Below are positions 6,814 through 27,406 of a DNA stretch of 53,011 nucleotides, one piece after another. The stretch covers positions 1 through 53,011 of IMG/VR virus record IMGVR_UViG_3300020725_000001, one strand, 5' to 3'. A program made the position numbers and the translations under genes. Every line of letters starts with the position of its first letter. Position 1 is the first letter of the stretch. The notes beneath the pieces were generated by a model, which searched no databases, was not told where the DNA came from, and saw nothing but the letters and a program-made list of their open reading frames with translations. This stretch comes from a virus.

Positions 6814-8413
6814 TAGAAAAGAAATTGATCTTAAAGCCAGATTGATTAACGAATTTGATTTTTTTATAAGGTATTTCTTTAAGCATCAATTTGGGCGTAA
6901 ATTCATTATGACGCCTCATTTTTATGAGATCATTGATGCGTTGGTTGAGGTGGTAAAAGGTAATATTACTCGACTTATTATCAATATCCCCCCTAGATAT
7001 GGGAAAACAGCCGTAGCCGTTAAAATGTTTGTGGCATGGGTATTGGCTAATAATCCGGGCGCTAAATTTATTCATTTATCGTTTTCTGATGATCTAGCGC
7101 TAGATAATTCAAGTGAGATAAGAGAGCTAATCAAGTCTGAAGAGTACCAGCGTATATTTGGGGTGGCTATTAGAACTGATTCGGATAGTAAAAAGAAATG
7201 GTACACGATGGCAGGTGGCGGCTTGTATGCAACGTCTACTGGTGGGCCAATTACTGGATTCGGAGCTGGCGCTAAAACTCGTGAGAGGGCGGGTACAAAT
7301 AGTCCGTGTGATGGTTTTGAGGGTTGTCTCATACTTGATGACCCATTGAAGCCCGATGATGCATTCTCAGATACAATGAGAAGCCGCATTAATACCCGCT
7401 TTAATAACACTATTGCTTCGCGTGTTAACTCACCAACAACACCAATTATAGTGATAATGCAGCGTTTGCATGAAAATGATATGACAGGTTTTTTACTAGA
7501 AGGTGGTAGTGGTGAAGAATGGCATCATGTTTGTTTATCGGCTATTAAGCCTGATGGAACTGCTTTGTGGCCTGAGATGCACACTATAGAAAAACTAAGG
7601 GCAATGGAGCAAGCAGATCCCTATACATTTGCTGGCCAGTATATGCAGATACCTTCGCCTTTGGCGGGTGGTATTATCAAGCCGGACAATATTAGCGTTG
7701 TGCAGGCTATTCCGCATGGTGTGACCGAATGGGTGAGAGGTTGGGATTTTGCAGCTTCTACAACGGGTGATTTTACTGCTGGCGCTAAGATTGGACGCTT
7801 AGCTGATGGTCGGTGCATTATCGCTGATATGGTGCGCATAAGAGTGTCGCCTGATGAGCGAGATGCTGCATTGGTTAATACAGCGGCTCGTGATGGTGAT
7901 AACTGCCGCATATCTATTCCGCAAGATCCTGGGCAAGCGGGATTAACTCAGGTTAAATATTTGGTGCGTAGTCTGTCTGGATTTTCAGTTAAGGCTACAC
8001 CTGAGTCTGGTAATAAGGTGGTAAGGGCTGAGCCGTTTGCTGCTCAGATCAATGTCGGTAATGTGGTCATGCTTAAGGCTGATTGGAATGATGCGCTTAT
8101 CAGTGAGATGCGTATGTTTCCTAATGGTACGTTTGATGACCAAGTTGATGCGCTTTCTAGGGCGTTTTCAATGCTTATTGGCAATGAGCCCGCTATGATT
8201 TTCATTCCTGACGTAAGCAAGCCGGTTAATCCAGTGCAGGCACGCATATCAAAAGAAATGCCTGGGCTGCCTAGTGGTGTTATTGATGCAATTCAAGTGC
8301 CTGATGGAAACTTTTGCGGAAACTGCTCTGCGTATAGCGAGGGAAAGTGTTTAGATCGTGGGTTTTTGGTAGCTGTTCGTGATGTTGGGTGTCAATCATT
8401 TATACAAAGATAG
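6800..8413 (+). CDS. Terminase large subunit (packaging ATPase/nuclease)
   Basis: This 537-residue TerL drives DNA packaging and cuts the concatemer. The ATPase half has Walker A PPRYGKTAVA (about 64-72), Walker B CLILDDP (about 177-182) and the coupling motif IIVIMQRLHENDMTG. The RNase H-type nuclease half has GWDFAAS (near 315), QDPG and FDDQVDALS (about 444-452). An unusual C-terminal tail carries CGNCSAYSEGKCL and a final Cys, like a small zinc-binding knob. It overlaps the small subunit by 14 bp; ATG 6803 is an equal start candidate. Confidence 0.95.
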   Translation: MMNIDRKEIDLKARLINEFDFFIRYFFKHQFGRKFIMTPHFYEIIDALVEVVKGNITRLIINIPPRYGKTAVAVKMFVAWVLANNPGAKFIHLSFSDDLALDNSSEIRELIKSEEYQRIFGVAIRTDSDSKKKWYTMAGGGLYATSTGGPITGFGAGAKTRERAGTNSPCDGFEGCLILDDPLKPDDAFSDTMRSRINTRFNNTIASRVNSPTTPIIVIMQRLHENDMTGFLLEGGSGEEWHHVCLSAIKPDGTALWPEMHTIEKLRAMEQADPYTFAGQYMQIPSPLAGGIIKPDNISVVQAIPHGVTEWVRGWDFAASTTGDFTAGAKIGRLADGRCIIADMVRIRVSPDERDAALVNTAARDGDNCRISIPQDPGQAGLTQVKYLVRSLSGFSVKATPESGNKVVRAEPFAAQINVGNVVMLKADWNDALISEMRMFPNGTFDDQVDALSRAFSMLIGNEPAMIFIPDVSKPVNPVQARISKEMPGLPSGVIDAIQVPDGNFCGNCSAYSEGKCLDRGFLVAVRDVGCQSFIQR

Positions 8414-8777: not shown

Positions 8778-11372
8778 ATGTCAGACAACGCGCAATCAGT
8801 CGCATTTAACGAAAATGCCCCACAAGACGAACGCAATGATGCGCTTGCTGAATTGCAAAAGTCCCATAAAACAAATGCTTTAAGCGATCTTATTCCAGCA
8901 GAGGCTGTTAGGGAGGTGATTGCTCATATTCACGAAGGCTATCAGGATGAAGCTATTCGTAAGGCGATGAATCCTAATATTGTTCCATTTCCAAGCAAAC
9001 ATGCTAAGCGCAGAGAAAAAGGTATGCAGTCAATCCAGTTGGATGACTGGCAGCTGTCAGTCAATGGCGACTTTTGGGAACGTCCTAGTGCATTAGGCTT
9101 TGATTCTTTACGCATGATGGTAGAGCAAACGCCTATACTAAATGCTATTGTCATGACTAGGGTAAGGCAGGTACAGCGCTTTGCTAGAGTGACAGAAGAT
9201 AATAGGGATGCGCCGGGCTTTGAAATTAAGCATATTGATAAGTCACATCAACTTAATGATGCTGAGCAAGGCTCTATTCATCAGTTAAACAGATTCATAG
9301 CTAATTGCGGGTGGGAATTTTCACCACGCAGGCGCAAAGCTTTAAGGCGTGATTCATTTGCTCAGTTCTTGGGCAAGGTAACTCGCGACACTTTAATAAT
9401 GGATTCTGTCGGCATAGAGACCGAGTGGAAGCGTGATAAAGCCCAAGGAATGGATGGCTTTTACGCTGTTGACGGTGGCTCAATACGTTTATGTACGGAA
9501 GATGGTTATCGTGGCGATGATGAAATATTTGCGCTTCAAGTTGTGCAAGGAAGAGTCAGTGCAGCTTATAGCTTTGATGATTTGATTTATGAGCCGCGCA
9601 ATCCAAGATCTGATGTCTCTGTATGCGGCTATGGTCTGCCAGAAACAGAATTGCTGGTGCGAGTGGTGACAGGCTATCTAAATGCTTTAACCTATAACAT
9701 TAAAGGCTTTGATCAGAACGCTATTCCTAAGGGTATGTTGCACTTATCTGGCAACTATACTAATCAAGATATAGATGCCTTTAAGCGCTACTGGAACTCG
9801 ATGGTTAAGGGTATCAATAATCAATGGTCATTGCCGGTCATGGTTTCAAAAGATCAAGAGTCTAGGGCGAGCTTTGAGAAATTTGGAGTAGATTATGACG
9901 AGATGTACTTCGGCAAATGGATGACCTTTTTAACCTCTATTGCTTGCGCCATTTATGGTATGTCGCCATCTGAGATTAACTTTGATTCGTTTACTGCCGG
10001 TAGCTCCTCTGCGCTAGCTGGCTCTGATACTGCTGAAAAGCTAGCGGCGTCTAAGGACAGTGGCTTGCGGCCTGTATTAGCTTATTTTGAAAACCTAATC
10101 ACTGATTACATTGTTTCTGATTTTTCAGATAAGTATGTTTTTCGATGGACAGGGCTTGACCCTCAAAACGCTGATGAAAAGTTTGAGCTGCGTAAGCTGT
10201 TATTGACAGTTAATGAGGCTAGGGCAGAGGAGGGCTATGAGGCTATAAAAGGTCCTATGGGTGATGCGCCTTTAAATCCGCAATTAGTAGGGCCATGGAT
10301 GCAATTAACCCAGCAGCAGCCTGAACAGCCAGACTTTGGACAGCCTAGTCAAAGCTCTAGCAATGATAATCAAGGTGAACAAAAAAGCGATACAGTTGAG
10401 AAAAAGCCCGATAGCGATACAGTAGAGCCTGCTCAAGAAGAGCAAGCGGCTGAACCAGCTAAGCCTGCGCAGCCTGCTCAAGGTGCTGAATTAGCAAATG
10501 GTGATGAGGGATTGAGTAAATCATTTGAAGGTCATAAAGGCAGACCAGGGCATCAAGGCGGAAGTCAGGCCAAGTCTTCAACTGATAGTGATGAGGATTA
10601 TTCGGCTCATTTACCAGATTCATCAAAAATTAGCTCACTTGAAGAGGCTGAAAAATACTTTAAAGATAATATTGAAGGAAACTGGGCTATCACCATTAAA
10701 AGAAAGGCTGGGTTATTTGATGCAAAGCTAAATTTTAAGCAAAATCAGGATCATGCTTATACTAAAAAAAATAATGAAACTAATAAAAGGGAGTTTGAGG
10801 CTAAAAGAGCTTCTATGATGCAGTATATGGTGGACTGTATTGCTGATCCAGATGCTATCTTAGAAAACGGTGATAGGGAGATATTTGTAGAAAAAAATAT
10901 TAATGGCGTTAATTATGTGGTTATTCTTAGTTGGTTTGAAAAAGAAAAGGAGTATCGCTTTAGATCGGCTCATTATTGGAGTAATAAGGAATTTGATCAA
11001 AATCGTAAATATTACAAAATGCCAGCTCCAAAAGGCAGGAAGTCCACTAAAAACAAAGCCCCTGAAAGGCTTAGTAAGTCTTTAGGGGCTTTAATCAAAG
11101 ACACTGAAAATTTTGATAAGTCTTTAGTGTCTGCATCCGCACGGTTTTTAGACCTTACGGCCCCGCCCTTACCGATTTACCCGGAATCGCTCCAGCACCT
11201 ATCAGATAGGCTCGATTGGGGACTTGACAGTGACGGCATCCCCCACGAAAGTAATTTTAGATGTATGGCTGATTTTGTCAAGTCTTTGGGTGGTTGGAAT
11301 GAATTTGATTTTGAAAAAACAGAAGAGCTGGATTTTGGAACGCCTACACAAGTTATTTACACGATTGAATGA
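8778..11372 (+). CDS. Portal protein with C-terminal toxin-like nuclease extension
   Basis: The 864-residue protein has an HK97/SPP1-type portal core at about 75-500 (FDSLRMMVEQTPILNAIVMTR, FDDLIYEPRNPRSD, ITPSEI-like MSPSEINFDSF). Portals form the dodecameric DNA gate. A Gln/Pro/Glu-rich linker (about 510-580) and the segment GHKGRPGHQGGS (about 585-596) lead to an extra domain at about 620-735 (FEAKRASMMQYMVDCIADPD, REIFVEKNINGVNYVVILSW, FRSAHYW). That pattern fits the BECR/PBECR RNase-like fold found in phage polyvalent proteins. The last 100 residues are unassigned. Typical portals stop near 500, so the tail is an addition; the nuclease call is inference. Confidence 0.85.
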   Translation: MSDNAQSVAFNENAPQDERNDALAELQKSHKTNALSDLIPAEAVREVIAHIHEGYQDEAIRKAMNPNIVPFPSKHAKRREKGMQSIQLDDWQLSVNGDFWERPSALGFDSLRMMVEQTPILNAIVMTRVRQVQRFARVTEDNRDAPGFEIKHIDKSHQLNDAEQGSIHQLNRFIANCGWEFSPRRRKALRRDSFAQFLGKVTRDTLIMDSVGIETEWKRDKAQGMDGFYAVDGGSIRLCTEDGYRGDDEIFALQVVQGRVSAAYSFDDLIYEPRNPRSDVSVCGYGLPETELLVRVVTGYLNALTYNIKGFDQNAIPKGMLHLSGNYTNQDIDAFKRYWNSMVKGINNQWSLPVMVSKDQESRASFEKFGVDYDEMYFGKWMTFLTSIACAIYGMSPSEINFDSFTAGSSSALAGSDTAEKLAASKDSGLRPVLAYFENLITDYIVSDFSDKYVFRWTGLDPQNADEKFELRKLLLTVNEARAEEGYEAIKGPMGDAPLNPQLVGPWMQLTQQQPEQPDFGQPSQSSSNDNQGEQKSDTVEKKPDSDTVEPAQEEQAAEPAKPAQPAQGAELANGDEGLSKSFEGHKGRPGHQGGSQAKSSTDSDEDYSAHLPDSSKISSLEEAEKYFKDNIEGNWAITIKRKAGLFDAKLNFKQNQDHAYTKKNNETNKREFEAKRASMMQYMVDCIADPDAILENGDREIFVEKNINGVNYVVILSWFEKEKEYRFRSAHYWSNKEFDQNRKYYKMPAPKGRKSTKNKAPERLSKSLGALIKDTENFDKSLVSASARFLDLTAPPLPIYPESLQHLSDRLDWGLDSDGIPHESNFRCMADFVKSLGGWNEFDFEKTEELDFGTPTQVIYTIE

Positions 11373-12004
11373 TAATGAAAAAAACTAATTTACAACAAAA
11401 ACTACCCATACAAAGCCGAAATGTTATAGATGGCGATGTGCTTTATTTTAAACATCCAGAGCATGGCGCATTATCTGGAAAGGTTCATGCTGTCGGTCAG
11501 CATGGCGTTCAGGTTCTTCATGAAAGCGGCGAGGATGGAGTGGTGCGCGTACCTTGGGCTGATGTGTTGGGGCATAAAGAACGTAGAGCCAGAAAGCTTG
11601 TTTTAGTTGAACGTGGCGAAGATGGCGCTATTGCTGAGGATGAAGATGGTAATCGTGTTTATGTCGAAGGCGAGGTGCCAGAGGAAGAAAAACCACTCAA
11701 TAAAGCATTGCCTAGTGGTGATATTTCAGTGTTTGCGTTGAAAGAGCAAGCGGCCATTGATGCTGCGCTTATTTCTGCTGGATTTGTTCCGTCGATTGAG
11801 TACATACGCAAATCTTATGGTGAGCATTGGAACGAGCCACAAGTGAGTGCAGAAACGATTGCAGAAGCTCCTAAAGTAGACCTAGAGCCGTTGATTAAAG
11901 CGATTGCAGAGATTAAGGCTCATGCTGATATGGCTATTACTAATTTGCGTTCAGAACTAGCGTTAAAGTTAGCGCTTGGGGAAGGGAATGGCGCTGCTGA
12001 TTGA
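11369..12004 (+). CDS. Head-module protein with SH3-like N-terminus
   Basis: This 211-residue protein is coupled to the portal gene by a 4-bp ATGA overlap. Residues 20-95 (DGDVLYFKHPEHGALSGKV, GVVRVPWADVLGH) look like a KOW/SH3 barrel, and the rest is acidic and helical. Position between portal and Mu F-like protein suggests a virion or assembly accessory. I do not recognise a named family. ATG 11375 is an alternative start. Confidence 0.55.
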   Translation: MIMKKTNLQQKLPIQSRNVIDGDVLYFKHPEHGALSGKVHAVGQHGVQVLHESGEDGVVRVPWADVLGHKERRARKLVLVERGEDGAIAEDEDGNRVYVEGEVPEEEKPLNKALPSGDISVFALKEQAAIDAALISAGFVPSIEYIRKSYGEHWNEPQVSAETIAEAPKVDLEPLIKAIAEIKAHADMAITNLRSELALKLALGEGNGAAD

Positions 12005-14201
12005 TATATCAAATATTCCAGAGTGCTCTTGTGATGGCGCATTAGAGCATCTACACAAAGCACTGAATGATGAAGACGGTTTAGCGCATGATATTTGGGC
12101 GCAACATGAAAGCCCATTTATACGTGAGCTAATCGAAAAGTTTACTGATCGTGGCCTATTTAAGATTGCTAAGGTTCAGGAGGAGTTGAAAAAGTGGCTG
12201 GCAGGCGATTATTACGTTCCTGCTCTAAGGCACACAACAGTTCCTGTAGGTTATATGGGTCGTTGGACACAAGCAGAGCTTGATTTAGTTTATACCTATT
12301 TGCAAAACATACCGCCAGATTTAATGACGCTAAATGATTGGTCTATGCTGATTGATTATACAGTACAGCGATATTTGCCGGCTGATCAACTTAATGAAGA
12401 GGCTGAGTGGCTAGCGGTTAAGTCGGGATTAATGGGAAAGGCGCAAGTGCACATGGACAATATTGATATTGCTGCAGCTGCAACCATTGTTGAGGCATTG
12501 CCTTCGACTGTAGTAGAAGCGGTAACGATGTTTAACCTATCTCCAGCTGCTGAAGCGATTATGGAATATGGCAAGCTTTATGGTTGCGAGAATGTTCAGG
12601 CTGTTTCTGATGGGTTTAGGCATAAGCTTAAGAAGGTCATTTTAAATCATGAGTCAGCTAAGCTATTGAATGATGAGTCGTCTAATGCTCAGACGCTAGA
12701 ACAAGCTTTATTTGATACGTTTTCATCTGCAAATAGAGACTGGCGTAGGATCGCGCTAACAGAAGCCGGTGAAATGGCTAATCAAGGCGTTATTGCTTCA
12801 TTGCCTGCTGGGTCTAAAGTTAGGCGCATGGAAATGTACAGAGGCGCCTGCCCATTTTGTAAAAAGATCGATGGGCGAATTTTTAGCGTGGTTGATCCGT
12901 CCTCTGAAGACAAGGACGGCACTAAGGAAGTTTGGGTAGGTAAAACCAATATAGGCCGATCATCGTCCCCACGAAAGCGTAGCGGTGATGAGTTGGTCGA
13001 GCGACTGCCATCTGAATTATGGTGGGTAGGTGCGGGAGTAATGCATCCCCATTGCTTTATTAATCCAAGGGTTCTAATTTACACAGTGCAGGGTTATAAG
13101 CCAATTTCAGATATAAAAGTTGGTGATTTAGTCTTGACTCACAAAGGAAGATTTAAGCCTGTAAATTGGGTTCTTAGTGGAAAGAAGCATACGGGCAACG
13201 TGATCGGCCTAACATTGGGTACTAAAAATAAAAAGAGAATGCCTTTTACAACTCCAGAGCACCCTTATTTAACATCGAGGGGATGGATTAAGTCAGGAGA
13301 TATAGTTGTTGGCGACAGAATTGTTGCTCTTTCTAAAATATGCCAAGGTTGCGGCAAGCCATTTGTTAATTTAAAGCACCCAAATGTTAATAATTGTGGG
13401 AAATCTTGCGTAGAGCCTAGTGGAAGTAATCAATTTTCTGAGCCAGACACAAGGGACGAGGCTAGGCAGGTTACTTCAGAAGCCAATAAGAAAAGAATGC
13501 GGCTAATGACTGTTGAGCAAAGGAGAGATCTTACTAAAAAGGCAAGAATTTCAGCCAAGGAAAAAGGGTATGAGTGGTTAAGAAGTGACGACGTTAAAAA
13601 AAGATCTGCAATTTCAAATGCAAATAAAAACTATACTCCCAGTGGCATTGAGTTATCTATACACAGAGAGCTTTTAGAGCTTGGTGTAGAGCCTACGCTA
13701 CAACACAGGGTTCTTTCTGGAATGAAAGACATCTCTGGAAGGGTGCGTTACTGGTGGTTAGATATAGCATTGACAGAGCAAAAAATAGCCATAGAGATAG
13801 ATGGCGCTGCTTGGCACAGAAGAGGCGAATTTATCTCAAGAGATGATCGTAGGGATAATGATCTTACTAGCATGGGGTGGACTGTTATGCGATTTGATCA
13901 TGAATTAGCAAAAGCTAACCCTAGTTTTATTGCCCAAGAAATAGCAAGATTGGCTATGAATCATTCTGGTGATTATGTGTTTTCAGACATAGAGGTTACT
14001 GATATTTGTGAAAAGGAGGTTGCAAATAAAAGGCTTTATAACTTTGGTGTTGAAGATGATGAGTCTTACATTATTGGCGGTGGAATTGTAGTGCATAATT
14101 GCCGTGGCCAGTGGGTGGCTATGGATTCGTCAGCTTTTGGTGATGATCCTGAGTTTGCTAGCTTTTTATCCAATTTGTTTAGTCATCAAGAGGGATTGTG
14201 A
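11988..14201 (+). CDS. Mu F/SPP1 gp7-like minor head protein, interrupted by an intein
   Basis: The host protein is about 388 residues once the intein is removed. N-extein residues 1-355 are helical and end in the Mu F C-terminal region (RMEMYRGACPFCKKIDGRIF, then WWVGAGVMHPH). The C-extein resumes with CRGQWVAMDS, restoring the diagnostic HPHCRGQW block. These proteins enter the head with the portal and act in head morphogenesis or injection. Residues 356-704 are the intein. ATG 11988 follows GAAGGGA closely and overlaps the previous gene by 17 bp; TTG 11976 is possible. Confidence 0.85.
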   Translation: MALLIDISNIPECSCDGALEHLHKALNDEDGLAHDIWAQHESPFIRELIEKFTDRGLFKIAKVQEELKKWLAGDYYVPALRHTTVPVGYMGRWTQAELDLVYTYLQNIPPDLMTLNDWSMLIDYTVQRYLPADQLNEEAEWLAVKSGLMGKAQVHMDNIDIAAAATIVEALPSTVVEAVTMFNLSPAAEAIMEYGKLYGCENVQAVSDGFRHKLKKVILNHESAKLLNDESSNAQTLEQALFDTFSSANRDWRRIALTEAGEMANQGVIASLPAGSKVRRMEMYRGACPFCKKIDGRIFSVVDPSSEDKDGTKEVWVGKTNIGRSSSPRKRSGDELVERLPSELWWVGAGVMHPHCFINPRVLIYTVQGYKPISDIKVGDLVLTHKGRFKPVNWVLSGKKHTGNVIGLTLGTKNKKRMPFTTPEHPYLTSRGWIKSGDIVVGDRIVALSKICQGCGKPFVNLKHPNVNNCGKSCVEPSGSNQFSEPDTRDEARQVTSEANKKRMRLMTVEQRRDLTKKARISAKEKGYEWLRSDDVKKRSAISNANKNYTPSGIELSIHRELLELGVEPTLQHRVLSGMKDISGRVRYWWLDIALTEQKIAIEIDGAAWHRRGEFISRDDRRDNDLTSMGWTVMRFDHELAKANPSFIAQEIARLAMNHSGDYVFSDIEVTDICEKEVANKRLYNFGVEDDESYIIGGGIVVHNCRGQWVAMDSSAFGDDPEFASFLSNLFSHQEGL
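13053..14099 (+). mobile_element. Intein with EDxHD-type homing endonuclease
   Basis: The 349-residue intein starts at Cys356 (HPH/CFINPR) and ends VVHN before extein Cys705. Splicing block A has CFINPRVLIYTVQGYKPI, block B has FTTPEHPYLT, block F RLYNFGVEDDESYIIGG and block G VVHN, so all expected catalytic residues (Cys1, block-B His, penultimate His, terminal Asn, +1 Cys) are present. Between them is a Cys4 motif (CQGCGKPF, CGKSC) and a Vsr-like EDxHD nuclease: WWLDIALTEQK, then AIEIDGAAWHRR (Glu603, Asp605, His610) and an Asp-rich helix. It should splice itself out and home into intein-free alleles. Confidence 0.9.
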
Positions 14202-16523: not shown

Positions 16524-19500
16524 ATGGCGCCCTTGATACTTTTATTTAAGTCCCACGTCAAAGGCTATACGCGTAAGGATGGGCATTATGTTAATCCTTA
16601 TACAAAAGATAACTCAGGAAGGCATGGGGTTCAGCACAGAGTTCCAGTAAAGAATAGTGTGCTTCAGTGGGCTGGGTTGGGCTTAAATCCCGTTGTTGCA
16701 GATTATTTTAAATTGCATACAAAGCATTCTGATCAATTTCCTGACGAAGCCTCTATGAGATCTCATGTTCAGTGGGTTATGGAGCATCCGCATGTATTTA
16801 TGCCAGCTACAAAAGATGGATATGTGATGTTTGTTCGTCGCGGAGCTTTAGACAAGTGTGTAGTTATTAACCCTGTTGTCAAGGGTGGGGCGAATGGATA
16901 TGTAGTTAGGTCAGCGTATATAATGAATGAGGATCAGCTAAAATCTTACATTAAAGCAGTATTCAAGTATCGAAAATATAACGTAAAAATTAGAAAGTCA
17001 ATCAGCGTCGGGGCGCTAAGTCCGAGCTTCTTGTCCGGTTCCGAATTATCAGAGCGATCAACAAGGTGGCTCCCCATTTCTCACGAAAAGGTTCAACTGA
17101 TTGCAAAATGCAATTTACCTGAAGATAGCAATTTAATCAAGTGGATGATTGAAAGCGGAATTAATTATAAAAATACAAGCTTTACTAAATCAGATATATC
17201 AATGGATAGGTACAGTTCACCATATGAGCTATCAGAATATCAAATAAAATCAGGCAATTATAAAAAACGATCAATTTCGTGGAATGGTTTGACTATCAAG
17301 ATAGAGAATGAGGCCGGGTCAGTTCGTAGCGGCCAAGATCCTAATGGCAAATTATGGGAAGTTCGCATGATTTACCCTTATGGTTATGTTAGTAATTCAA
17401 CGGGGGTTGATGGTGATGAGGTTGATATATATTTGGGCTTTAATCTTAATGCGCCAATAGTTTACATTGTTCACCAGCGAAAGGTGGGGGACTGGTCGGA
17501 ATACGACGAAGATAAGTGCATGATCGGCTTTGATTCTGAGGATGACGCAAGACAAGCATTTTTGCATCATTATGATGATCCTCGTTTTTTGGGCGAAATA
17601 ACAGCTATGTCTGTTGGCGAATTTGTTGATAAAGTAAAAGCCACCAACAAAAAACCAGCTATGATTAAAGCTTTGCCTGTAACTTTGTCAGAAAGGCTTG
17701 CTAAGGCTGGCTTTATCTGGCGTGAAGTACCCTTTACTCGTGAGTCATGGGATGGCGAGTTCCCAGGCAATATGGTTAAGTCGTTCATGGGTGATTTGAT
17801 AGAACTTCTCCCTGAAACGCTAGATTATCCTGACTATGGCTCATCACTCATTGGCGCATTAAAGCCAACAATAGAAAGCCCATTAATTATTCATCATGAG
17901 GTAGGTCAGGCTTCTTTTTTTCGAGCAATAATTAACGCAGACGGCTCAATACTAGGCTACTCTAAAGTAACGCTATGGAAAGGTTTTTCTCGTGTTGAGA
18001 TTATTCAAGATTTACCGGCTCTTGAAGGGTGTATTGACCATGGCATTAATGTCATTGCTGATTTCGTTGATGAGGGTCATGCCGTATTTAAATGCCTATC
18101 GCTGGGTAAATTTCTTGTCACTGATTTTGGTATCGCTTCACATTTAATGGATTGGGGTGTTGAGTTCTTTAAGTCTGATCATGGCGCTATACCAGATGGC
18201 GCAAGATGGATAACGGTTCATCCAAACGGCGAAGGCTCTAAAGGTGTTCCAATATTGGTGCAGCCTGCCAAGGATAATTCAGGTACGTTCCGAGTGGTGG
18301 GCGGCGCAGGTGGCAAACTTAATATGCTTAAGTTACGCGGTGTTAAGTCTGAAGCTGATTATAAACAGGAGCATTCAGAGCGTGCGCACAATAAACGATT
18401 AGTCGACAAAGAGCGTATAAGGCGTGATAAAGAGCTAGGCATACATGATGCAAAGACTCAGGCCAAAGAAAATATTAATGCTCAACGAAAGAAGTCGCAA
18501 AAAGATTTTATCAAAACTGTTGCTGATGCTATGGGTTGGAAGCATGAAGAAACAGAGCTAAATACATCCGGATTGTCAGAGCAAGCCGCTAAAAAGGCAG
18601 AGCTTAAGCATCATGCGGAATTATTGACCAGGGCTAAGGAAGCTGTCAATGTACAGCGTAAAATGCTGGTTGATAATGCTGATGCGCGGGCAGCTGCTGG
18701 TCTGGGCGTAATGCCGCTACATGATGAAAATGCGGCTTTAATTTCTGCTGATGATCTTGATCCGGTTCGTTTAACTGACAAGTCGGGTATTTCTCAAGAT
18801 TTTAAAAAGCGCGCTGAAAATGCTGGGCTGACGCAAGATAGTCTTGATTCAAAAGTCAGCGAAACCAAGACGACTGGCAAGACGGATGCACAAATTGAAA
18901 GAGGCCAGATAGCGCAAGATATTAAAGACGAGTTATCAAAGCTGCCAAAACCTGACTTAAATGCAAAAATAGTTGATGCTAAAAAAGCTGTTGAGCTGAT
19001 CAAGGCGCAAAAGAAATTAGCGGCCATGGAAAAAGCTGCGCGTGATGCAAACAAGGAGGTTAATAAAGCGACTGTAGAGCCTAAAGCCTATGTGTTAGCA
19101 ACCTCTGAGCCTGATGATAAGGTCGCGCTTAAGGCGATACATGACGATTTAAGTACATCTAAGGCCAAGGCCTTTTTAGCAGGTGTGCAAGCAGTAGGTG
19201 GAGAGGAGTCAATAGAAAGTCATGTCTCTACGGGCGCATATAATGTTATTAATGCGTTATCCCATGCAGTAGGCGGTGATTCTCTAATGGATAGATCAGT
19301 TATCGACGTGTTAGGAATTGCGGGCGCTGCTCAAGTGCTTGCAAGGCGTTTGCATTCTGATTACAAAGATAAGACTGATGATATTGCCAGCGGCGTTGAG
19401 GAATATCATGTGGCACATGCTCCGGAGTTACAGAGCGAAGCCCTAGCACAGGCTCAAGAGCTGCAGGACATAGCTAACAAGATTGAAATGGATCAGGCCG

Positions 19501-22500
19501 CAAACTCGCAAGACTTTGCTCATGCCTCTGGGCTGAATCATCAACGTAAAGAGCATTTAGCAACAGCACGTAAAGTCATGGGGCAAGCTCTAGGAGAAAT
19601 GGAAGCAAATGCGGCTATTTCTGCGGCACTGCGCGGTGGTAAGCGTGACTTTGTTCAGGTGTCCTTGGGCAAGTCTACATCAGAATCAGCTGTACAACAG
19701 CTATGGGCTTTGGGCTTAAATAATGACGACTTTAATCTGGATAAGGTGGCCGGAAATACTTTTGCAACCATTAAAGCTTCTGGCATGGACAAGCTTGCTA
19801 AACCTATCGACAAAGAGAATATGCAGCGTATAGATCGCAATCTATCTATTATGCGTGGTGATGAAGATGAGGATGATTGGCTGCCGCAAGGCTTCTCTAA
19901 GCGCCCTGACTTGGGTCTTAATTTTAAAGCTGGAGTTGCTCCGCAGCTATCGCAGCCTTTTGATGCTAAAGGTTCTAATTTAGCAGATTCAGTGCGTGAG
20001 TATATTGGTGGTCGCATGGCTGATGGGGATAGACCAGCTGATATATTGTCGGATCTAAATTCCTTGCCCTTTATGCTATCGGTGGGTGCTGATCGAGCTT
20101 CTGAATACAGAAAAGCCCTTAATGAGGCTATCCCTACTAAGAATTTTAATGGTAAGTTAATGCGAGTCGAGCATTTAGAACCCATATTTCAGCAATACGC
20201 TGATGATTATGTGGCTTCTAAATGGGGCGGTACGCGTTCAACGCTTAATAAACAAACCTTTGAGCCTGATGCGATTGCACAAGATGCGCTGCATAGGGCA
20301 TTAGCGTCTGAGCCTGCCGGTAAGATTGCTTATAAGCCTATTGGTGAGCTAACAGCGCAAGATCGATCAGCCTTGCGCAATTGGTTTTATAAAAATGTTG
20401 CTAAAGAATCACCAGAGCAAGCAGGGTTGCGTGAAAAAGCTGACAATCTTCAAAAGAATGAGCCCATTAAATTTACTGAGGATCTGTTTGGCGAGGTTTC
20501 GGAAAATCCAGCCTGGAAAGCATGGAAGAGTGACTACGATGAAGCGAGTGCAGTTGCGGCTGATGCGGGTTTAGATTGGGGTAAATACTCGCATTTAATG
20601 CGAGGTAGTGTTAGGGCTTTTGAGTCTATACAAGATTTAATCCGCTCAAAAGTCTCAGAGAGCTTTGCGCAAAACTATAATACACAACGTCCTGATGCTG
20701 CGTTAAAGATCGGCAAGACTATTGTAAGAAACAATCTTAATCATCTTGATGCTGTTGATCCTACTGAGCGTGAAAAGCGGCTAAAGGCTGAGCGTTCACT
20801 TATTGATTCTTTACGAGAGCGAGTACAAGGAAAATATTCGTCTGGATCTGTAGGCGACAAGATAGAGCAAGCCAAAGAGAAGCAAGCGGCTTATGGTCAA
20901 GCGCAGATGTCTTTATTTTCGTCTGAAGAAGATGACAATAAGGAGGCGCTAGCTTTAAAAGCGGATGAACGCAAAACCATAGGCCACGCCGCTGAAAACA
21001 TGATCAACAAAATGATGGGGGTAGTCGGTGCTAATTTTGAGCCTAATAAGCCAGTCAAGTTATTTAATCCGTCGATGTCCGGACCTGATGGCGTAAAGCG
21101 ACAAAGAGCCATCAAGCTAGTCGAAGCCAATAAGCGCGTAATGCTTGGGGCCGGAGTGGGTTCAGGCAAATCAGCTATGATGCTGGGCGCATTTTCTAGC
21201 CTGCATTCACAAGGCAAGATAAAAAAAGGCGTGATCTGCTGCCCAAGTATCGTGCAAGGACAAATGGGTGCTGAAGCCTTGCGCTTCTTAGAGGCTGGTA
21301 AATACAACTGGCATTGCAATCCTGGCGATTCCTTTGAAAGCCGTCTTGCTTCTTATAAAGATCCAGATAACCATTTTACCGTAGTCACACATCAATCTTT
21401 TCGTGATGATCTACTAAAAATGGCAAGTCTAAAGACCGGCGAAAGCACTGATGTAATTGCTGACAAAATGGGCGGCATGACGCAAAAGGAAAGGGCGAGC
21501 TATACCAAGGATGTGCTAGATCACCACGGCATTAACTTTGATTTCTCTGCGGTTGATGAAGGGCATAACCTGTTAGATCGTGAAGGTAAAGAAAACTCAC
21601 GCATGTCTAATGTGATTGGTGGGGTAACCGATAATACGCCTTACCATATTTCAGCAACAGCTGATCCTGTTAAAAATGATGCTTCTGAGGCATTTAGTGC
21701 GCTACAAAAGATGGACGGCGACCGTTATAACGATCGTGATGCGTTCATGCGGCGTTATGGTAGCGATACCCAAGCCGCTAAGCAGGGTTTGCAGAAAGAG
21801 TTAGCTAGGCATTTGTACGCTATGGAAGTTAAGCCAGATATTAGTGTGAACAAGCAACAGATTAAGGTGCCACAAACCGAGGCGCAACAAGAGGCACTGA
21901 AGACCGTAGAACAGCAAGCCGCTAGCTTACGCATTGCTAAAATGACTAATCAAGTCGATATAAAGACAGCTCAAGCTTTTGCACCCGCCATGTTTGATGG
22001 TGTACCAGAAGACCAGCATGAAGCCGTTGCAAAAAAGGTCGCTGATTCAGTCGGTATCATGAAGCAATCAGCTATTCGCAAGGTGCTAGATAATCATCCT
22101 GCTGCAGGAAAGCTTAATAAGTTGATTGAGATAGCTAATGGTAAGAAAGGACAGCAAGGCGTGGTCTTTGCTCACTCACTAGAGGCGGTCGAGAGCATTA
22201 GAAAGCGTTTAGAAGCAGAGGGTCATCGAGTCGTGACTATCTCCGGCAAGGATTCAGCAAAAGATAAGGCGGCAAAGATACAGGCCTTCAATCCTGATAA
22301 GGGCGATGCCAAAGCCGATATTATTGTCTGCTCTGATGCAGGAGCTACTGGCGCAAACCTTCAATCTGGTCGTTGGCTTGCGCAATATGATATTCCTCAG
22401 ACTGCTATGAACCACGCGCAACGTCAAGGCCGTATCAATCGAATTGGTCAAAAGAACGACATTGATTTAATTGATCTGGTTTCAGACCATGAATCAGATA

Positions 22501-22646
22501 AACGCGCACAAAGCCGACTCTCTAATAAGTACGCGCTACGAAATTTAATGACTACACCGCTAGATGCTATGGATGACAGCGGCTTAGGCTATTATTTAAA
22601 GCAACAAGGCATAGGTGCAGCTAAGCCACAAAGTGATTTATTTTAG
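16524..22646 (+). CDS. Giant polyvalent protein: BECR-like, pyrophosphatase-like and SF2 helicase domains
   Basis: The 2,040-residue protein starts with the linker YTRKDGHYVNPY seen in phage/plasmid polyvalent proteins. Residues about 64-140 (MRSHVQWVMEHPHVFMPAT, YVMFVRRGALDKCVVINPVV, YVVRSAY) resemble a BECR nuclease. Residues about 245-385 (GVDGDEVDIYLG, VYIVHQRKVGDWSEYDED, HHYDDPRFLGEI) match the InPase-like domain of such proteins. A long helical middle follows. The C-terminal third is an SNF2-like helicase: GAGVGSGKS (about 1545), DEGH (about 1678), SATADP, and QRQGRINRIGQ (about 1966). Such proteins are thought to be injected with DNA and act against host systems. TTG 16512 is an alternative start. 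Its stop shares a base with late element 5. Confidence 0.85.
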   Translation: MAPLILLFKSHVKGYTRKDGHYVNPYTKDNSGRHGVQHRVPVKNSVLQWAGLGLNPVVADYFKLHTKHSDQFPDEASMRSHVQWVMEHPHVFMPATKDGYVMFVRRGALDKCVVINPVVKGGANGYVVRSAYIMNEDQLKSYIKAVFKYRKYNVKIRKSISVGALSPSFLSGSELSERSTRWLPISHEKVQLIAKCNLPEDSNLIKWMIESGINYKNTSFTKSDISMDRYSSPYELSEYQIKSGNYKKRSISWNGLTIKIENEAGSVRSGQDPNGKLWEVRMIYPYGYVSNSTGVDGDEVDIYLGFNLNAPIVYIVHQRKVGDWSEYDEDKCMIGFDSEDDARQAFLHHYDDPRFLGEITAMSVGEFVDKVKATNKKPAMIKALPVTLSERLAKAGFIWREVPFTRESWDGEFPGNMVKSFMGDLIELLPETLDYPDYGSSLIGALKPTIESPLIIHHEVGQASFFRAIINADGSILGYSKVTLWKGFSRVEIIQDLPALEGCIDHGINVIADFVDEGHAVFKCLSLGKFLVTDFGIASHLMDWGVEFFKSDHGAIPDGARWITVHPNGEGSKGVPILVQPAKDNSGTFRVVGGAGGKLNMLKLRGVKSEADYKQEHSERAHNKRLVDKERIRRDKELGIHDAKTQAKENINAQRKKSQKDFIKTVADAMGWKHEETELNTSGLSEQAAKKAELKHHAELLTRAKEAVNVQRKMLVDNADARAAAGLGVMPLHDENAALISADDLDPVRLTDKSGISQDFKKRAENAGLTQDSLDSKVSETKTTGKTDAQIERGQIAQDIKDELSKLPKPDLNAKIVDAKKAVELIKAQKKLAAMEKAARDANKEVNKATVEPKAYVLATSEPDDKVALKAIHDDLSTSKAKAFLAGVQAVGGEESIESHVSTGAYNVINALSHAVGGDSLMDRSVIDVLGIAGAAQVLARRLHSDYKDKTDDIASGVEEYHVAHAPELQSEALAQAQELQDIANKIEMDQAANSQDFAHASGLNHQRKEHLATARKVMGQALGEMEANAAISAALRGGKRDFVQVSLGKSTSESAVQQLWALGLNNDDFNLDKVAGNTFATIKASGMDKLAKPIDKENMQRIDRNLSIMRGDEDEDDWLPQGFSKRPDLGLNFKAGVAPQLSQPFDAKGSNLADSVREYIGGRMADGDRPADILSDLNSLPFMLSVGADRASEYRKALNEAIPTKNFNGKLMRVEHLEPIFQQYADDYVASKWGGTRSTLNKQTFEPDAIAQDALHRALASEPAGKIAYKPIGELTAQDRSALRNWFYKNVAKESPEQAGLREKADNLQKNEPIKFTEDLFGEVSENPAWKAWKSDYDEASAVAADAGLDWGKYSHLMRGSVRAFESIQDLIRSKVSESFAQNYNTQRPDAALKIGKTIVRNNLNHLDAVDPTEREKRLKAERSLIDSLRERVQGKYSSGSVGDKIEQAKEKQAAYGQAQMSLFSSEEDDNKEALALKADERKTIGHAAENMINKMMGVVGANFEPNKPVKLFNPSMSGPDGVKRQRAIKLVEANKRVMLGAGVGSGKSAMMLGAFSSLHSQGKIKKGVICCPSIVQGQMGAEALRFLEAGKYNWHCNPGDSFESRLASYKDPDNHFTVVTHQSFRDDLLKMASLKTGESTDVIADKMGGMTQKERASYTKDVLDHHGINFDFSAVDEGHNLLDREGKENSRMSNVIGGVTDNTPYHISATADPVKNDASEAFSALQKMDGDRYNDRDAFMRRYGSDTQAAKQGLQKELARHLYAMEVKPDISVNKQQIKVPQTEAQQEALKTVEQQAASLRIAKMTNQVDIKTAQAFAPAMFDGVPEDQHEAVAKKVADSVGIMKQSAIRKVLDNHPAAGKLNKLIEIANGKKGQQGVVFAHSLEAVESIRKRLEAEGHRVVTISGKDSAKDKAAKIQAFNPDKGDAKADIIVCSDAGATGANLQSGRWLAQYDIPQTAMNHAQRQGRINRIGQKNDIDLIDLVSDHESDKRAQSRLSNKYALRNLMTTPLDAMDDSGLGYYLKQQGIGAAKPQSDLF

Positions 22647-22694: not shown

Positions 22695-23441
22695 ATGAGT
22701 ATGCAGTTAATACACGGTGATTGTCTGGTTGAAATGGCTAATATGGCGGATGGTAGTGTGGATTTAATCGTAACTGATCCGCCTTATTACTCTACTGAGC
22801 TGGCATTTGATAAAGCGCCTAGAATCGACTACAAACAATGGTTAATCGACTGTAAGCGAGTTTTAAAAGATACGGGCGTTCTAGTTTCGTTTTGTGATTT
22901 AAACCTACTGATTGAGCTTAAGGGCTATAAAGTTTTTAAAACAGCTTATGAAATTGTCTGGGAAAAGACAATGCCTGTTGGTTTTTTAAACGCAAATTTA
23001 CGGCCAATGATGGCGCATGAATTTATTGTCGTGATGACTAACGCGCTTAAAAAATCGACTTATAACCCGCAGAAAGTAGCGGGTAAAGCCTATACTGCTA
23101 CGCATAAAGCTGACCGTCATAGACACGTATCGAAACATAAAGGGTGTACTACGATTAACACTGGCGACCGTCACCCTAGATCGGTGCAAAAATTTAGCAA
23201 CAATAACCATAAATCATTACACCCTACACAAAAGCCCATTGATTTATGCCAATGGTTAATTAATTCCTATTCAAATGCAGATGATGTGGTGCTGGATTGT
23301 TTTATGGGGGGGGGTAGCGTGAAAGTTGCAGCCCAGCTAACAGGCCGCAGATTCATAGGCATTGAACTTGACGCTGGCTATTTTGAAATAGCCAAAAACA
23401 GAATTGAAGGCGCTCAAGGTAAAGAGGTAGAGGCGGCATGA
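22695..23441 (+). CDS. DNA N4/N6 methyltransferase
   Basis: The 248-residue enzyme has the catalytic TDPPYYS (Asp28-Tyr31) near the N-terminus and the AdoMet-binding VVLDCFMGGGSV (about 199-210), followed by RRFIGIELDAGYFEIA, an order of the beta class (Dam/Mtase N6/N4 type). It transfers a methyl group from S-adenosylmethionine to adenine or cytosine N4, probably protecting phage DNA. No restriction enzyme is nearby. The FMGGGS codons contain nine consecutive G (23306-23314), a tract prone to slippage. Confidence 0.9.
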   Translation: MSMQLIHGDCLVEMANMADGSVDLIVTDPPYYSTELAFDKAPRIDYKQWLIDCKRVLKDTGVLVSFCDLNLLIELKGYKVFKTAYEIVWEKTMPVGFLNANLRPMMAHEFIVVMTNALKKSTYNPQKVAGKAYTATHKADRHRHVSKHKGCTTINTGDRHPRSVQKFSNNNHKSLHPTQKPIDLCQWLINSYSNADDVVLDCFMGGGSVKVAAQLTGRRFIGIELDAGYFEIAKNRIEGAQGKEVEAA

Positions 23442-24322: not shown

Positions 24323-24397
24323 AAAAAATCCTAAATTATTTTTTAATAGTGCACCTGATTTGATCGCTAAATTTGTAGATTAATTACCGTTTTGTTA

Positions 24398-24416
24398 GGT
24401 CGTGACAAAATAATAA
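24398..24416 (+). promoter_or_regulatory. Late element 6 before the prohead protease (short spacing)
   Basis: GGTCGTGACA plus AAATAATAA is a full match. The protease ATG (24422) follows after only 5 nt and no Shine-Dalgarno is present, so initiation just downstream of the element would give a near-leaderless mRNA. Confidence 0.6.
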
Positions 24417-24421
24417 TAGCT

Positions 24422-25318
24422 ATGAAAATAGATTATTTATCAACTGAAGATCGTGGATTGCTAGATGCAGTGCCGTCTTATCTAAGCATTACCCAAATGC
24501 TAAAAGCATCGCCTGTTACGGAGGGAGTTGATCGCTTTATTTATCTGGAAGCCTCTAACGAGTCGTTAGATCAGCAGAATGAAGTAGTGCTTGCAAAAGC
24601 GCTTGAGGAATCGGCAGCTTATTACCTAAAGTTTGGCAATCTTGATATAGATCATTTCACTCAAATTGGTGCAAAAGCCGGGATTCCTAATTATGAATTA
24701 TTTGAAATTGGCCGTCCTGTTGATGTGGCTGTACGCGACGGGGCGACCTTTGTTAAGGGGCAAATCTATTCAGGTTCTGGATCAGCTGCCGAGCGTGCAA
24801 ATTCTTTCTGGTCATCATTAACCGAACTTAACCCTCCTGCTCGCTGGTATCCCTCTGTGGGCGGCTCAGTCATTGCTAAGTCGGTGATTATTGATCCTGA
24901 AACTAAAGCAAAGCGTGCCGTTATCAATAAAGTTAGGTGGTCAAACATAGGTTTCTCAAAAACACCGGTTAACGCCAACCTAGCTACCGTATCTACTCTT
25001 CCTTTTGGCGCATTAGCAAAATCTTTGTGCGCTGAAGGCTTTGACTTCATCAAGGCCATTGAAGCGGGTTATGGAACAGATTCCGCAGCGCTATCAGGTG
25101 GTAGTGCATTGCGTAAACAAAGTTTGGAATCGAATCTTCTTAGTTACTGGGACTTTCGAGACCATCTTGCGGATGCTATCCGCAAAAAAAGAGTCAGTGG
25201 CGCCAAGCCTGCTGAACTTGTTAATTTCGCTCATAAACAGTTTGGCATGTCGGTTGATGTTGCCGCAGCTTCTGTTGAGCGTTTTCTAAGTGACCTAAAA
25301 AGAGGCTTGAAACAATGA
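24422..25318 (+). CDS. Prohead maturation protease
   Basis: This 298-residue protein precedes a scaffold-like gene and the capsid gene. It has the assemblin-type layout: an acidic/His block KFGNLDIDHF (catalytic His candidate), a long beta region, WYPSVGGSV (Ser candidate) and RWSNIGFSKTPVN. It would cleave scaffold and capsid inside the prohead. Residues 211-241 (KAIEAGYGTDSAALSGGSAL and onward to LLS) closely match the capsid N-terminus. The C-terminal 60 residues are helical. TTG 24392 in the same frame would run through the late element and is rejected. Confidence 0.8.
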   Translation: MKIDYLSTEDRGLLDAVPSYLSITQMLKASPVTEGVDRFIYLEASNESLDQQNEVVLAKALEESAAYYLKFGNLDIDHFTQIGAKAGIPNYELFEIGRPVDVAVRDGATFVKGQIYSGSGSAAERANSFWSSLTELNPPARWYPSVGGSVIAKSVIIDPETKAKRAVINKVRWSNIGFSKTPVNANLATVSTLPFGALAKSLCAEGFDFIKAIEAGYGTDSAALSGGSALRKQSLESNLLSYWDFRDHLADAIRKKRVSGAKPAELVNFAHKQFGMSVDVAAASVERFLSDLKRGLKQ

Positions 25319-25944
25319 GTTTTGAAAAACTATTGGGCGAACTGGAAGAACTCCAGTCCATGCATAAATCTGAACCTGCTAATGAAGATAAAGGCGGCGG
25401 TGATGAGGATGATAAAAAAATCGCGGAAGCGGCTGAATTAAATGACCAAGAAAATCATGATGAGCCTGCTGACGATAAAAATGAAAATGAAGACAAAGAC
25501 AAAGATGATGAGCCTATGGGCAAGTCATTTAATTTCAAATTAGATTCTGGCGAAGAGATTGATGCTGTTGATGGCACAGAATTTATTAAATCGTTAATGT
25601 CAAAAATTGATGGTCAAGAAGTATCTGTGAAGAAGTTTATGGGTACTGCGCTGGATCTTATTAAATCTCAAGGTGAGCAAATTAGCGCACTTAAAACCGA
25701 AATTACGAAGCTTGGCTCTGAAGGTCGTGGTCGTAAAACTGTTGTTTCAATAGCTGAAAAACCTGCTGCTGGAACAATGGCAAAAAGTGAGCCTGAAGGT
25801 TTATCTGCCGAAGAGTTTATGGCGAAAGCGTTAACAGCACAAGCTGCTGGCCGCTTAACCGCACTCGATGTGTCGATAGCCGAGGCTTCATTCCTAAAAG
25901 GTCTGCCCGTTCGTGCCGACATTGTTAATAAAGTTCTAGTGTAA
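25315..25944 (+). CDS. Acidic scaffold-like protein
   Basis: The 209-residue protein overlaps the protease by ATGA. Its N-terminal 75 residues are very acidic (GGGDEDDKKIAEAAELN, DDKNENEDKDKDDEP), followed by a helical, coiled-coil-prone middle and a C-terminus ending GLPVRADIVNKVLV. Position between protease and capsid, length and charge fit a scaffolding protein. No sequence family was recognised, so the call rests on context. Confidence 0.6.
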   Translation: MSFEKLLGELEELQSMHKSEPANEDKGGGDEDDKKIAEAAELNDQENHDEPADDKNENEDKDKDDEPMGKSFNFKLDSGEEIDAVDGTEFIKSLMSKIDGQEVSVKKFMGTALDLIKSQGEQISALKTEITKLGSEGRGRKTVVSIAEKPAAGTMAKSEPEGLSAEEFMAKALTAQAAGRLTALDVSIAEASFLKGLPVRADIVNKVLV

Positions 25945-25957
25945 CTAAGGAAAATAT

Positions 25958-27406
25958 ATGTTAAATCCTGCTCTGTTGCCCAGTGTCGCCAATGGGCAAT
26001 CTGTTTCTGGCGAAATGTCATTTGGTGAAGTTGGTGAACTAAAGAAAGCTCTTGAAGCTGGCTATGGTTCTGATGTTGCTCAATTGCAAGGTGCTGGTGC
26101 ATTACGTATCCAGTCTCTTGAGAAAACCATGTTATCTACCATTCAAGAAAACAAGCATTTTGCTTTGTTTAATGAGATGGCAAAAACTAATGCTACTGCA
26201 ACTGTTGACGAATGGACTGAACAGTCTGGAGTTGGCGGCTTTTTGGGCGGCTCAACTAACTCTGAAACAGGTATTATTGCCGGTGCTCAAGGTCAATACA
26301 ATCGTAGGGTTGGCTTAGTTAAATACTTAATGACTCGTCGTGAGGTATCTTTCGTTTCTACTCTGCAAAATTCAATTGTAGAAGCTGAAGCAGTTGAAGC
26401 GCAAAACGGTGCTTTGCAGTTATTGACTGATGCTGAATTCTTAAGTTTTGAGGGCGATAGCTCAATCGTTCAAACTGAATTTGATGGTATTTATTCACAA
26501 ATCGCCTCTTTGGGCGACAGTGAGCATATTATTGATGCAGCGGGCGAGCCATTAAATAGCATTAGTGCTATTGACCAAGCGGCAGCATTGATCACTGGCT
26601 TTGGTAACTTTGGTACTCCAACGCATTTGTTCATGTCGCAATTAAATCAATCTGATTTCAACACCCATCTTGATCCTGCTTTCCGTGTTTCACTGAATGG
26701 CACATCTCAAGAATTGATGTTAGGCGCACCTGTTAAAGGTATTTCTACATCATGGGGCGATATTAAAACAATTCCTGATGTATTTATCCGTGATGAGCGC
26801 CAACAAAAGCCTTTTGAAGTTGAGTTCCCAACTGTAGCTTCTCAAAATGCACTTTTCAAGCCTGCTACCGTAACTGCTGTTGCAGATGCTGGCGGTGCTG
26901 ATTCTAAATGGAAAGCAAGCCAAGGTGGCAATTACTATTATGCAGTTGCTGGCGTTAATGCTGCTGGTCAGTCAACCGTAGTTGTTACAGGTCAAATTGC
27001 TGTTTCTGCTGGTGATGCAGTTACTTTAACAATTGCTCGTTCTGCTTCTGGTGCTGAGACTGGTTATGCGATCTATCGTGGTCGATTGAATGGTTCTGAT
27101 GCTGTTGATGATTTGCGTTTGATGTGCCGTATTCCTGCATCAGGCGCAACAACTACTTTTGTAGACAAAAATCGCAAGATACCAGGTACTACAAAAGCAT
27201 ATTTATTGAATATGTTGCCAGGCCAGCAAGCAATTACATGGCGTCAATACTTGCCTATGACTAAATTCCCATTGTATCCAACTAATGCAGCGACCGTGCC
27301 ATGGGCGCAATTGTTGTTTGGTTACCTAAGAATCGGCAAGCGCAAGCATCATGTTGTTATTGAAAACATCGTTCCATCAGGTGCTTTATGGAAGCCTTTC
27401 GGATAA
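25958..27406 (+). CDS. Major capsid protein with Ig/FN3-like insertion
   Basis: The 482-residue protein has a strong ribosome site (TAAGGAAAATAT), follows protease and scaffold, and ends in a terminator, all typical of a major capsid gene. Residues 30-60 (KALEAGYGSDVAQLQGAGAL, RIQSLEKTML) resemble the protease C-terminal region. The core (VGLVKYLMTRREVSFVSTLQ, THLFMSQLNQSDFNTH) suits an HK97 fold. Residues about 310-410 (NYYYAVAGVNAAGQSTVVV, GAETGYAIYRGRLNGSD, TTTFVDKNRKIPG) look like an Ig/FN3-type domain, probably exposed on the capsid surface. Confidence 0.85.
   Translation: MLNPALLPSVANGQSVSGEMSFGEVGELKKALEAGYGSDVAQLQGAGALRIQSLEKTMLSTIQENKHFALFNEMAKTNATATVDEWTEQSGVGGFLGGSTNSETGIIAGAQGQYNRRVGLVKYLMTRREVSFVSTLQNSIVEAEAVEAQNGALQLLTDAEFLSFEGDSSIVQTEFDGIYSQIASLGDSEHIIDAAGEPLNSISAIDQAAALITGFGNFGTPTHLFMSQLNQSDFNTHLDPAFRVSLNGTSQELMLGAPVKGISTSWGDIKTIPDVFIRDERQQKPFEVEFPTVASQNALFKPATVTAVADAGGADSKWKASQGGNYYYAVAGVNAAGQSTVVVTGQIAVSAGDAVTLTIARSASGAETGYAIYRGRLNGSDAVDDLRLMCRIPASGATTTFVDKNRKIPGTTKAYLLNMLPGQQAITWRQYLPMTKFPLYPTNAATVPWAQLLFGYLRIGKRKHHVVIENIVPSGALWKPFG

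What the first reader, a model, noticed from the sequence alone, without database searches (positions are those of the whole stretch)
16524..22646. 2,040-residue polyvalent protein combining nuclease-like, pyrophosphatase-like and helicase domains
The order BECR-like, InPase-like, long helical region, SNF2-like helicase is a clear polyvalent architecture of the type proposed for proteins delivered at infection to counter host systems. The roughly 1,100-residue middle has no recognised domain.
Basis: partly seen in the sequence, partly recalled or inferred. Interest (0 to 1): 0.65.

Follow-up and report, generated by a model that had tools for sequence, protein, structure and literature searches.

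The report
Phage effector polyprotein with cleavage tags
A giant phage protein carries several host-targeting enzymes joined end to end, and short repeated tags at the joints suggest that the phage's own head-building protease packs it into the virus head and cuts it into separate injectable enzymes.

Summary
The 2,040-residue ORF (ATG at 16524) is real and intact in further contigs. InPase (239-371) and an SF2/SNF2-like helicase (1527-2015) are confirmed. The "domainless" middle is not anonymous: residues 554-2015 are one phage helicase family (PHROG 62, E 3e-152), helix-rich, without known fold. An N-terminal BECR nuclease is plausible but unproven; 395-505 is a second BECR candidate.

The gene sits between portal/MuF and head protease/scaffold/capsid genes. 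Relatives with this layout carry separate replicative helicases. In many relatives InPase and helicase are separate genes flanking a DarB-like methylase and Ulx. In the nearest relative (L005) an ADP-ribosyltransferase replaces BECR-InPase behind the same N-terminal leader.

New: a [LMIFV]-x-K-[A/S] motif marks the leader, domain joints and helicase junction. It is found before 70 of 71 helicases, in 24 of 26 inter-domain intervals, and at the N-terminus of 58 of 58 capsid proteins. Scaffold and protease are 6-8-fold enriched; tail and replication proteins are not. A homologous solved capsid protein starts exactly at this K|S position. I infer a head-protease cleavage site: a polyprotein packaged via a leader and cut in the prohead before injection. 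Packaging and cleavage were not shown experimentally.

The parts
16524..22646 (+). whole fused polyvalent ORF, 2,040 aa
16524..16550 (+). N-terminal leader MAPLILLFK|S (K9), candidate capsid-targeting and first cleavage tag
   Evidence: same leader on the unrelated cargo of L005; similar leaders on NUDIX, ART, RelA/SpoT, DarB-like, InPase and helicase proteins of related phages
16656..16997 (+). possible PBECR-like nuclease, residues ~45-158, ends at tag K158
   Evidence: H81/S130 pattern only; no Pfam hit, low model confidence
17238..17636 (+). InPase domain (PF18823), residues 239-371, flanked by tags K222 and K382
17706..18038 (+). second BECR-like candidate, residues ~395-505, with tags K394 and K419 near its start and K550 after it
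   Evidence: hhalign prob 97, E 5e-11 to a region of L055 that hits PBECR2 below its cut-off
18165..18176 (+). junction tag F-F-K550|S, probably the relic of the helicase's own N-terminal leader
   Evidence: motif within 30 aa upstream of the RWIT motif in 70 of 71 relatives
18174..21101 (+). helicase-associated region, residues 551-1526: small beta module (RWITVHPNG) then long helices
   Evidence: PHROG 62; model pLDDT 81.5 over 552-1489, no known fold
21102..22583 (+). SF2/SNF2-like ATPase core, residues 1527-2020
22695..23441 (+). N6/N4 DNA methyltransferase gene directly downstream
   Evidence: PF01555 E 2e-34; phrog_16 matches both the helicase and this methylase, in different segments
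24392..25318 (+). head maturation protease, inferred to recognise [LMIFV]-x-K|[A/S]
   Evidence: phrog_1028; similar to Staphylococcus phage head maturation serine protease, E 1e-3
25315..25944 (+). probable scaffold, six motif copies in 209 aa
25958..27406 (+). major capsid protein with predicted cut ELKK30|A31
   Evidence: aligned solved homologue starts after its K24; site in 58 of 58 capsid proteins
8778..11372 (+). portal with a PBECR3-like C-terminal domain (655-738) bracketed by tags K581 and K767
   Evidence: PF18812 E 0.0018, below cut-off; tags

Best explanation
This is a virion-delivered effector polyprotein. It is made late from the head operon. Its short hydrophobic leader ending in K9|S directs it into the prohead. 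The head maturation protease then cuts after Lys in [LMIFV]-x-K|[A/S] tags at K9, K158, K222, K382, K394, K419 and K550. This releases a possible BECR nuclease, the pyrophosphatase, a second BECR-like module and the ~1,490-residue SNF2-like translocase inside the head. The pieces are ejected with the DNA. The translocase, perhaps with the neighbouring DNA methylase, protects incoming DNA as P1 DarB does, while the small enzymes act on RNA or nucleotides. Shown: domains, synteny, cargo swap, motif distribution. Inferred: packaging, cleavage, ejection, enzymatic roles.
For: (1) The gene lies between portal/MuF and protease/scaffold/capsid genes here and in PHB04, Mecenats66 and, downstream of it, Cumys. 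(2) PHB04 annotates a helicase and a primase/helicase elsewhere in the genome; the papers report separate replication helicases for Mecenats66 and the Lalka phages. (3) L005 has the same leader and an 87%-identical helicase, but LPD3+ART cargo in a separate overlapping ORF. (4) The motif precedes RWIT in 70/71 helicases (shuffled 7.5; control windows 0-12). (5) It brackets InPase: 38/41 downstream (shuffled 5.4), 28/32 upstream where there is room (shuffled 4.1). (6) In multi-domain proteins: 6 sites inside Pfam domains (expected 4.0), 47 outside (expected 10.1), and 24/26 inter-domain intervals hold one. (7) Observed/expected: scaffold 325/42, protease 344/52; sheath 18/13.5; PHB04 early genes 20/19, tail 10/8. 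Reversed, Arg and Glu versions are enriched far less or not at all. (8) Capsid protein site 58/58; the 439-residue chain of 9row_B starts at S25 of the 5lii_P sequence, aligned to the K30|A31 position here. (9) HK97 is cut at K103/S104 (PMC10275583). T4 Alt loses six N-terminal residues to its head protease (PMC5694885). The first 30 residues of P1 DarB suffice for packaging of a reporter (PMC9024508).
Against: No virion proteomics or N-terminal data were found for this phage or its helicase-bearing relatives. The motif is short; within residues 1-550 of this protein alone the excess is modest (6 against 1.7, p 0.007). The distance to the solved capsid protein with the matching start is large (E 1e-20) and the protease link to staphylococcal phages is weak (E 1e-3). 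Five motif copies lie inside InPase domains of relatives, and four lie in this protein's helicase middle.
Confidence: 0.62

Rival explanations
1. It is packaged and ejected as one intact polyvalent protein, like P1 DarB. The K-[A/S] motif is only a docking tag for scaffold or capsid, not a cleavage site.
For: P1 DarB (251 kDa) is found in virions with an N-terminal targeting signal (PMC9024508). A docking tag would also explain the leader and its spread over head proteins.
Against: A docking tag does not easily explain copies at nearly every domain joint (24 of 26), multiple copies in scaffold and protease, or the solved capsid chain starting at this position.
Confidence: 0.2
2. It is an intracellular replication or recombination helicase that happens to carry accessory domains and is not packaged.
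For: PHROG 62 is labelled DNA helicase, and no other replicative helicase was recognised in the window.
Against: It lies in the head operon; PHB04, Mecenats66 and Lalka have separate replication helicases; it has the leader and cargo swaps shared with effector proteins. The record may be incomplete, so absence of a replicative helicase here says little.
Confidence: 0.08
3. The fused ORF and the motif pattern are chance or composition effects of Lys/Ala-rich head proteins.
For: The motif is short and degenerate.
Against: Shuffles keep each protein's composition; control positions, reversed and Arg/Glu variants, tail and early genes show little or no excess. The helicase part of the ORF is under purifying selection.
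Confidence: 0.03

Closest known systems
Polyvalent proteins (Iyer et al. 2017, PMC5512222)
   Same: Disparate enzymatic domains (InPase, BECR-like, SNF2 helicase, ART in relatives) in one late-gene phage polypeptide.
   Different: Iyer et al. propose processing by embedded metallopeptidase or assemblin-like domains. Here no embedded peptidase was found; joints instead carry a motif fitting the separate head protease.
P1 DarB/Ulx defence-against-restriction system
   Same: SNF2-like helicase in the head module; relatives carry a DarB-like methylase-helicase and a Ulx-like protein next to this helicase; N-terminal packaging leader.
   Different: This helicase lacks the fused methylase, coexists in relatives with a separate DarB-like protein, and its leader does not resemble P1 DarB's N-terminus.
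T4 internal proteins / Alt and the SPN3US head proteins
   Same: N-terminal propeptide cut by the head protease at a P3-x-P1 motif.
   Different: T4 and SPN3US cut after Glu; the inferred site here is after Lys. Those proteins are not multi-enzyme polyproteins.
PHROG 62 'DNA helicase'
   Same: Residues 554-2015 match the family profile throughout.
   Different: Most relatives are separate ~1,500-aa genes; this one is fused to cargo.

Membership tests
Polyvalent proteins | Two or more disparate effector-type domains in one polypeptide | tested here: met
   InPase plus SF2 helicase
Polyvalent proteins | Encoded among virion or late genes | tested here: met
Polyvalent proteins | Delivered into the host with the DNA | not testable with these tools
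   needs virion proteomics
InPase (PF18823) | Profile match over cut-off and metal-binding Asp motif | tested here: met
   144.7 bits against cut-off 26.8; DGDEVDI at 296
PBECR nucleases (N-terminal segment) | Profile match or BECR fold | tested here: inconclusive
   no hit, low model confidence; His/Ser pattern only
PBECR nucleases (residues 395-505) | Profile match or BECR fold | tested here: inconclusive
   indirect via L055, which hits PBECR2 below cut-off
DarB-like antirestriction proteins | Adenine methylase fused N-terminal to SNF2 helicase | tested here: not met
   no methylase in the ORF; a separate N6/N4 methylase gene follows
PHROG 62 helicase | Match over associated region and helicase core | tested here: met
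   E 3e-152, residues 554-2015
Head-protease-processed ejection proteins | Cleavage at a protease-specific site during head maturation | not testable with these tools
   motif distribution supports it; cleavage itself not observed

The most novel reading that the evidence does not exclude
A family of myoviruses uses one Lys-specific head protease both to mature the capsid and to dice fused effector polyproteins. A [LMIFV]-x-K|[A/S] code works as leader cut and joint cut, so that any enzyme flanked by two tags becomes packaged, separated cargo. The code would predict the injected proteome directly from sequence.
Probability: 0.5. Interest if true: 0.8.

Novelty: new variant of a known kind. Interest (0 to 1): 0.64.

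Why it matters
Which phage proteins are injected, and how fused effectors become separate enzymes, is mostly unknown. If the code holds, the tags identify cargo in dozens of phage loci at once (ADP-ribosyltransferases, NUDIX, alarmone synthetases, pyrophosphatases, nucleases, helicases). They also define a swappable packaging leader and explain how cargo modules shuffle without disturbing function. The prediction can be tested by mass spectrometry on cultured phages.

Tried and rejected
Pfam scans of the N-terminal 239 aa and of 385-559 alone gave nothing. A viral-contig search with the N-terminus found only near-identical copies. AlphaFold on 1-563 with a thin alignment was confident only over InPase. 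The middle model found no fold neighbour in PDB or BFVD. I suspected the linker 386-545 to be the small Ulx-like gene that precedes the helicase elsewhere; there is no similarity. I looked for leader similarity to P1 DarB: none by eye. Vibrio phage XM1 proved no useful test, because its capsid propeptide is short but its cut residue is not given in the passages read. A first PHB04 composition test with greedy ORFs mis-picked antisense ORFs and was replaced by annotated genes. Papers searched: no virion proteomics for Mecenats66 or Cumys in the passages found; no paper on fHe-Yen8-01.

Full report
What is there. The window is an IMG/VR virus record of 53,011 bases holding a myovirus: terminase 6800-8413, portal 8778-11372, MuF-like minor head protein 11976-14201, the ORF in question, a DNA methyltransferase, head maturation protease, scaffold-like protein, capsid protein 25958-27406 and tail sheath 40220-41929. 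The ORF runs from ATG 16524 to 22646, 2,040 aa. Two contigs carry the same full-length frame and a third carries its first 1,728 residues at 100% identity. Against L002 dN/dS is about 0.08-0.09 in the helicase part. Residues 1-550 are nearly identical there, so selection on them could not be measured; in L005, residues 389-550 give 0.2.

Domains. InPase is secure (signature at 296; structural match to type I pyrophosphatases). The helicase is secure and SNF2-like. Residues 554-2015 together match one phage helicase family, PHROG 62. Its associated ~940-residue region is collinear across an alignment of 56 sequences and is modelled as a small beta module followed by long helices (pLDDT 81.5), with no known fold. 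The N-terminal BECR call stays open. Residues 395-505 are a second BECR candidate, through relative L055.

Genomic logic. In Bordetella phage PHB04, Morganella phage Mecenats66 and Thermus phage Cumys the same helicase is a separate gene just upstream of the protease-capsid genes; in the first two the portal gene lies upstream of it. In Thermus phage Lalka8 it lies after a tail module instead. In PHB04, L007, L012 and L017 the InPase is its own gene, followed by a 2,000-2,800-aa gene and a ~110-aa gene and then the helicase. That large gene is a DarB-like methylase-SNF2 protein where scanned (PHB04, L007, L012). The small protein shares the pattern PRxYRxxGxYWxxIKxLL with P1 Ulx, by eye. PHB04 annotates other helicases in a replication region, and the papers report separate replication helicases for Mecenats66 and Lalka.

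Cargo swap. The nearest relative, L005 (helicase 87% identical), has the same leader (MAALILFFKSHVKGYTRKDG) but then LPD3 plus ART-PolyVal, in a separate ORF that overlaps the helicase ORF by four bases. Among 75 non-redundant relatives roughly 15 carry sizeable N-terminal extensions, with several different cargo combinations of InPase, ART, LPD3 or unknown segments.

The tag. Nearly every helicase has a hydrophobic-x-Lys-Ala/Ser motif just before its conserved RWITV module: MKPILFLK|AS in PHB04, EFFK|SD at residue 550 here. It is present in 70 of 71 within 30 residues, against 7.5 in shuffles and 0-12 in control windows. In fused versions it stays at the joint. InPase domains are followed by it in 38 of 41 and preceded by it in 28 of 32 with room; in nine InPase proteins on contigs without this protease or helicase it is 3 and 3, and two of those short contigs look like the same phage group. 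In eleven multi-domain proteins 24 of 26 inter-domain intervals hold a site, and sites avoid the domains (6 inside, 4.0 expected; 47 outside, 10.1 expected; Fisher p 7e-6).

Why a head-protease site. The motif is enriched 7.8-fold in the scaffold-like proteins and 6.7-fold in the head proteases themselves, 3-fold in portals, but hardly in sheath (1.3-fold) nor in PHB04 early (1.0) or tail genes (1.3). Reversed or Arg/Glu variants are enriched far less or not at all. All 58 capsid proteins have it near the N-terminus. The homologous solved capsid protein 5lii_P reads VVK24-S25, and the 439-residue chain 9row_B begins at that serine; I take this as the depositors' mature sequence. The head protease is distantly similar to staphylococcal phage head maturation proteases. 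HK97 is cut at K103/S104 (PMC10275583). T4 and SPN3US proteases use the same P3-x-P1 layout with Glu (PMC5694885, PMC10052503). T4 Alt is an ejected protein that loses a six-residue leader this way, and P1 DarB is packaged through its N-terminus, whose first 30 residues suffice for a reporter (PMC9024508).

Mechanism and limits. I infer leader-directed entry into the prohead, cutting at K9, K158, K222, K382, K394, K419 and K550, and ejection of separate enzymes. The functions after ejection are the weakest part. DNA protection by the translocase is argued from DarB and from the adjacent methylase. The pyrophosphatase and BECR roles are only those suggested by Iyer et al. No step after translation was observed.

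Comparison. It meets the sequence and context features of polyvalent proteins. It is not a DarB protein, since it has no fused methylase. Iyer et al. describe embedded peptidases for processing; a separate head protease reading a joint code was not found in the papers I could search, but that search is limited to open-access text and to a few terms.

Noticed in passing
window 13053-14099 within 11976-14201: A 349-aa intein (HINT plus DUF559/MTES_1575 nuclease) interrupts the MuF-like minor head protein between VMHPH and CRGQW; the homologue in L005 lacks it.
   Followed up: yes
window 42053-45836: A second polyvalent protein (LPD1 near its C-terminal end) with a similar leader (MTIILLSK|A) is split into two ORFs at a run of nine T; L156 has one 1,272-aa ORF and L155 reads through, so the split is an indel here.
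   Followed up: yes
window 10740-10991 (portal residues 655-738): A sub-threshold PBECR3 domain on the portal C-terminus, bracketed by K581|S and K767|S tags, as if a nuclease were shed from the portal by the head protease.
   Followed up: partly
[quoted passage not shown]
   Followed up: partly
L002 compared with window 16524-22646: Residues 1-550 are nearly identical (no synonymous change), while the helicase shows dS 0.14-0.34, suggesting recombination that moved the cargo segment between related phages.
   Followed up: no
L010 9059-10711: An InPase protein with leader VTPCVLLIKSRPVKGYVRSDG has an uncharacterised ~300-aa N-terminal domain and a second copy of the leader after InPase.
   Followed up: no
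L007 981-9455: A 2,824-aa DarB-like protein adds DUF6884 and a sub-threshold ART segment before its methylase and SNF2 domains.
   Followed up: no
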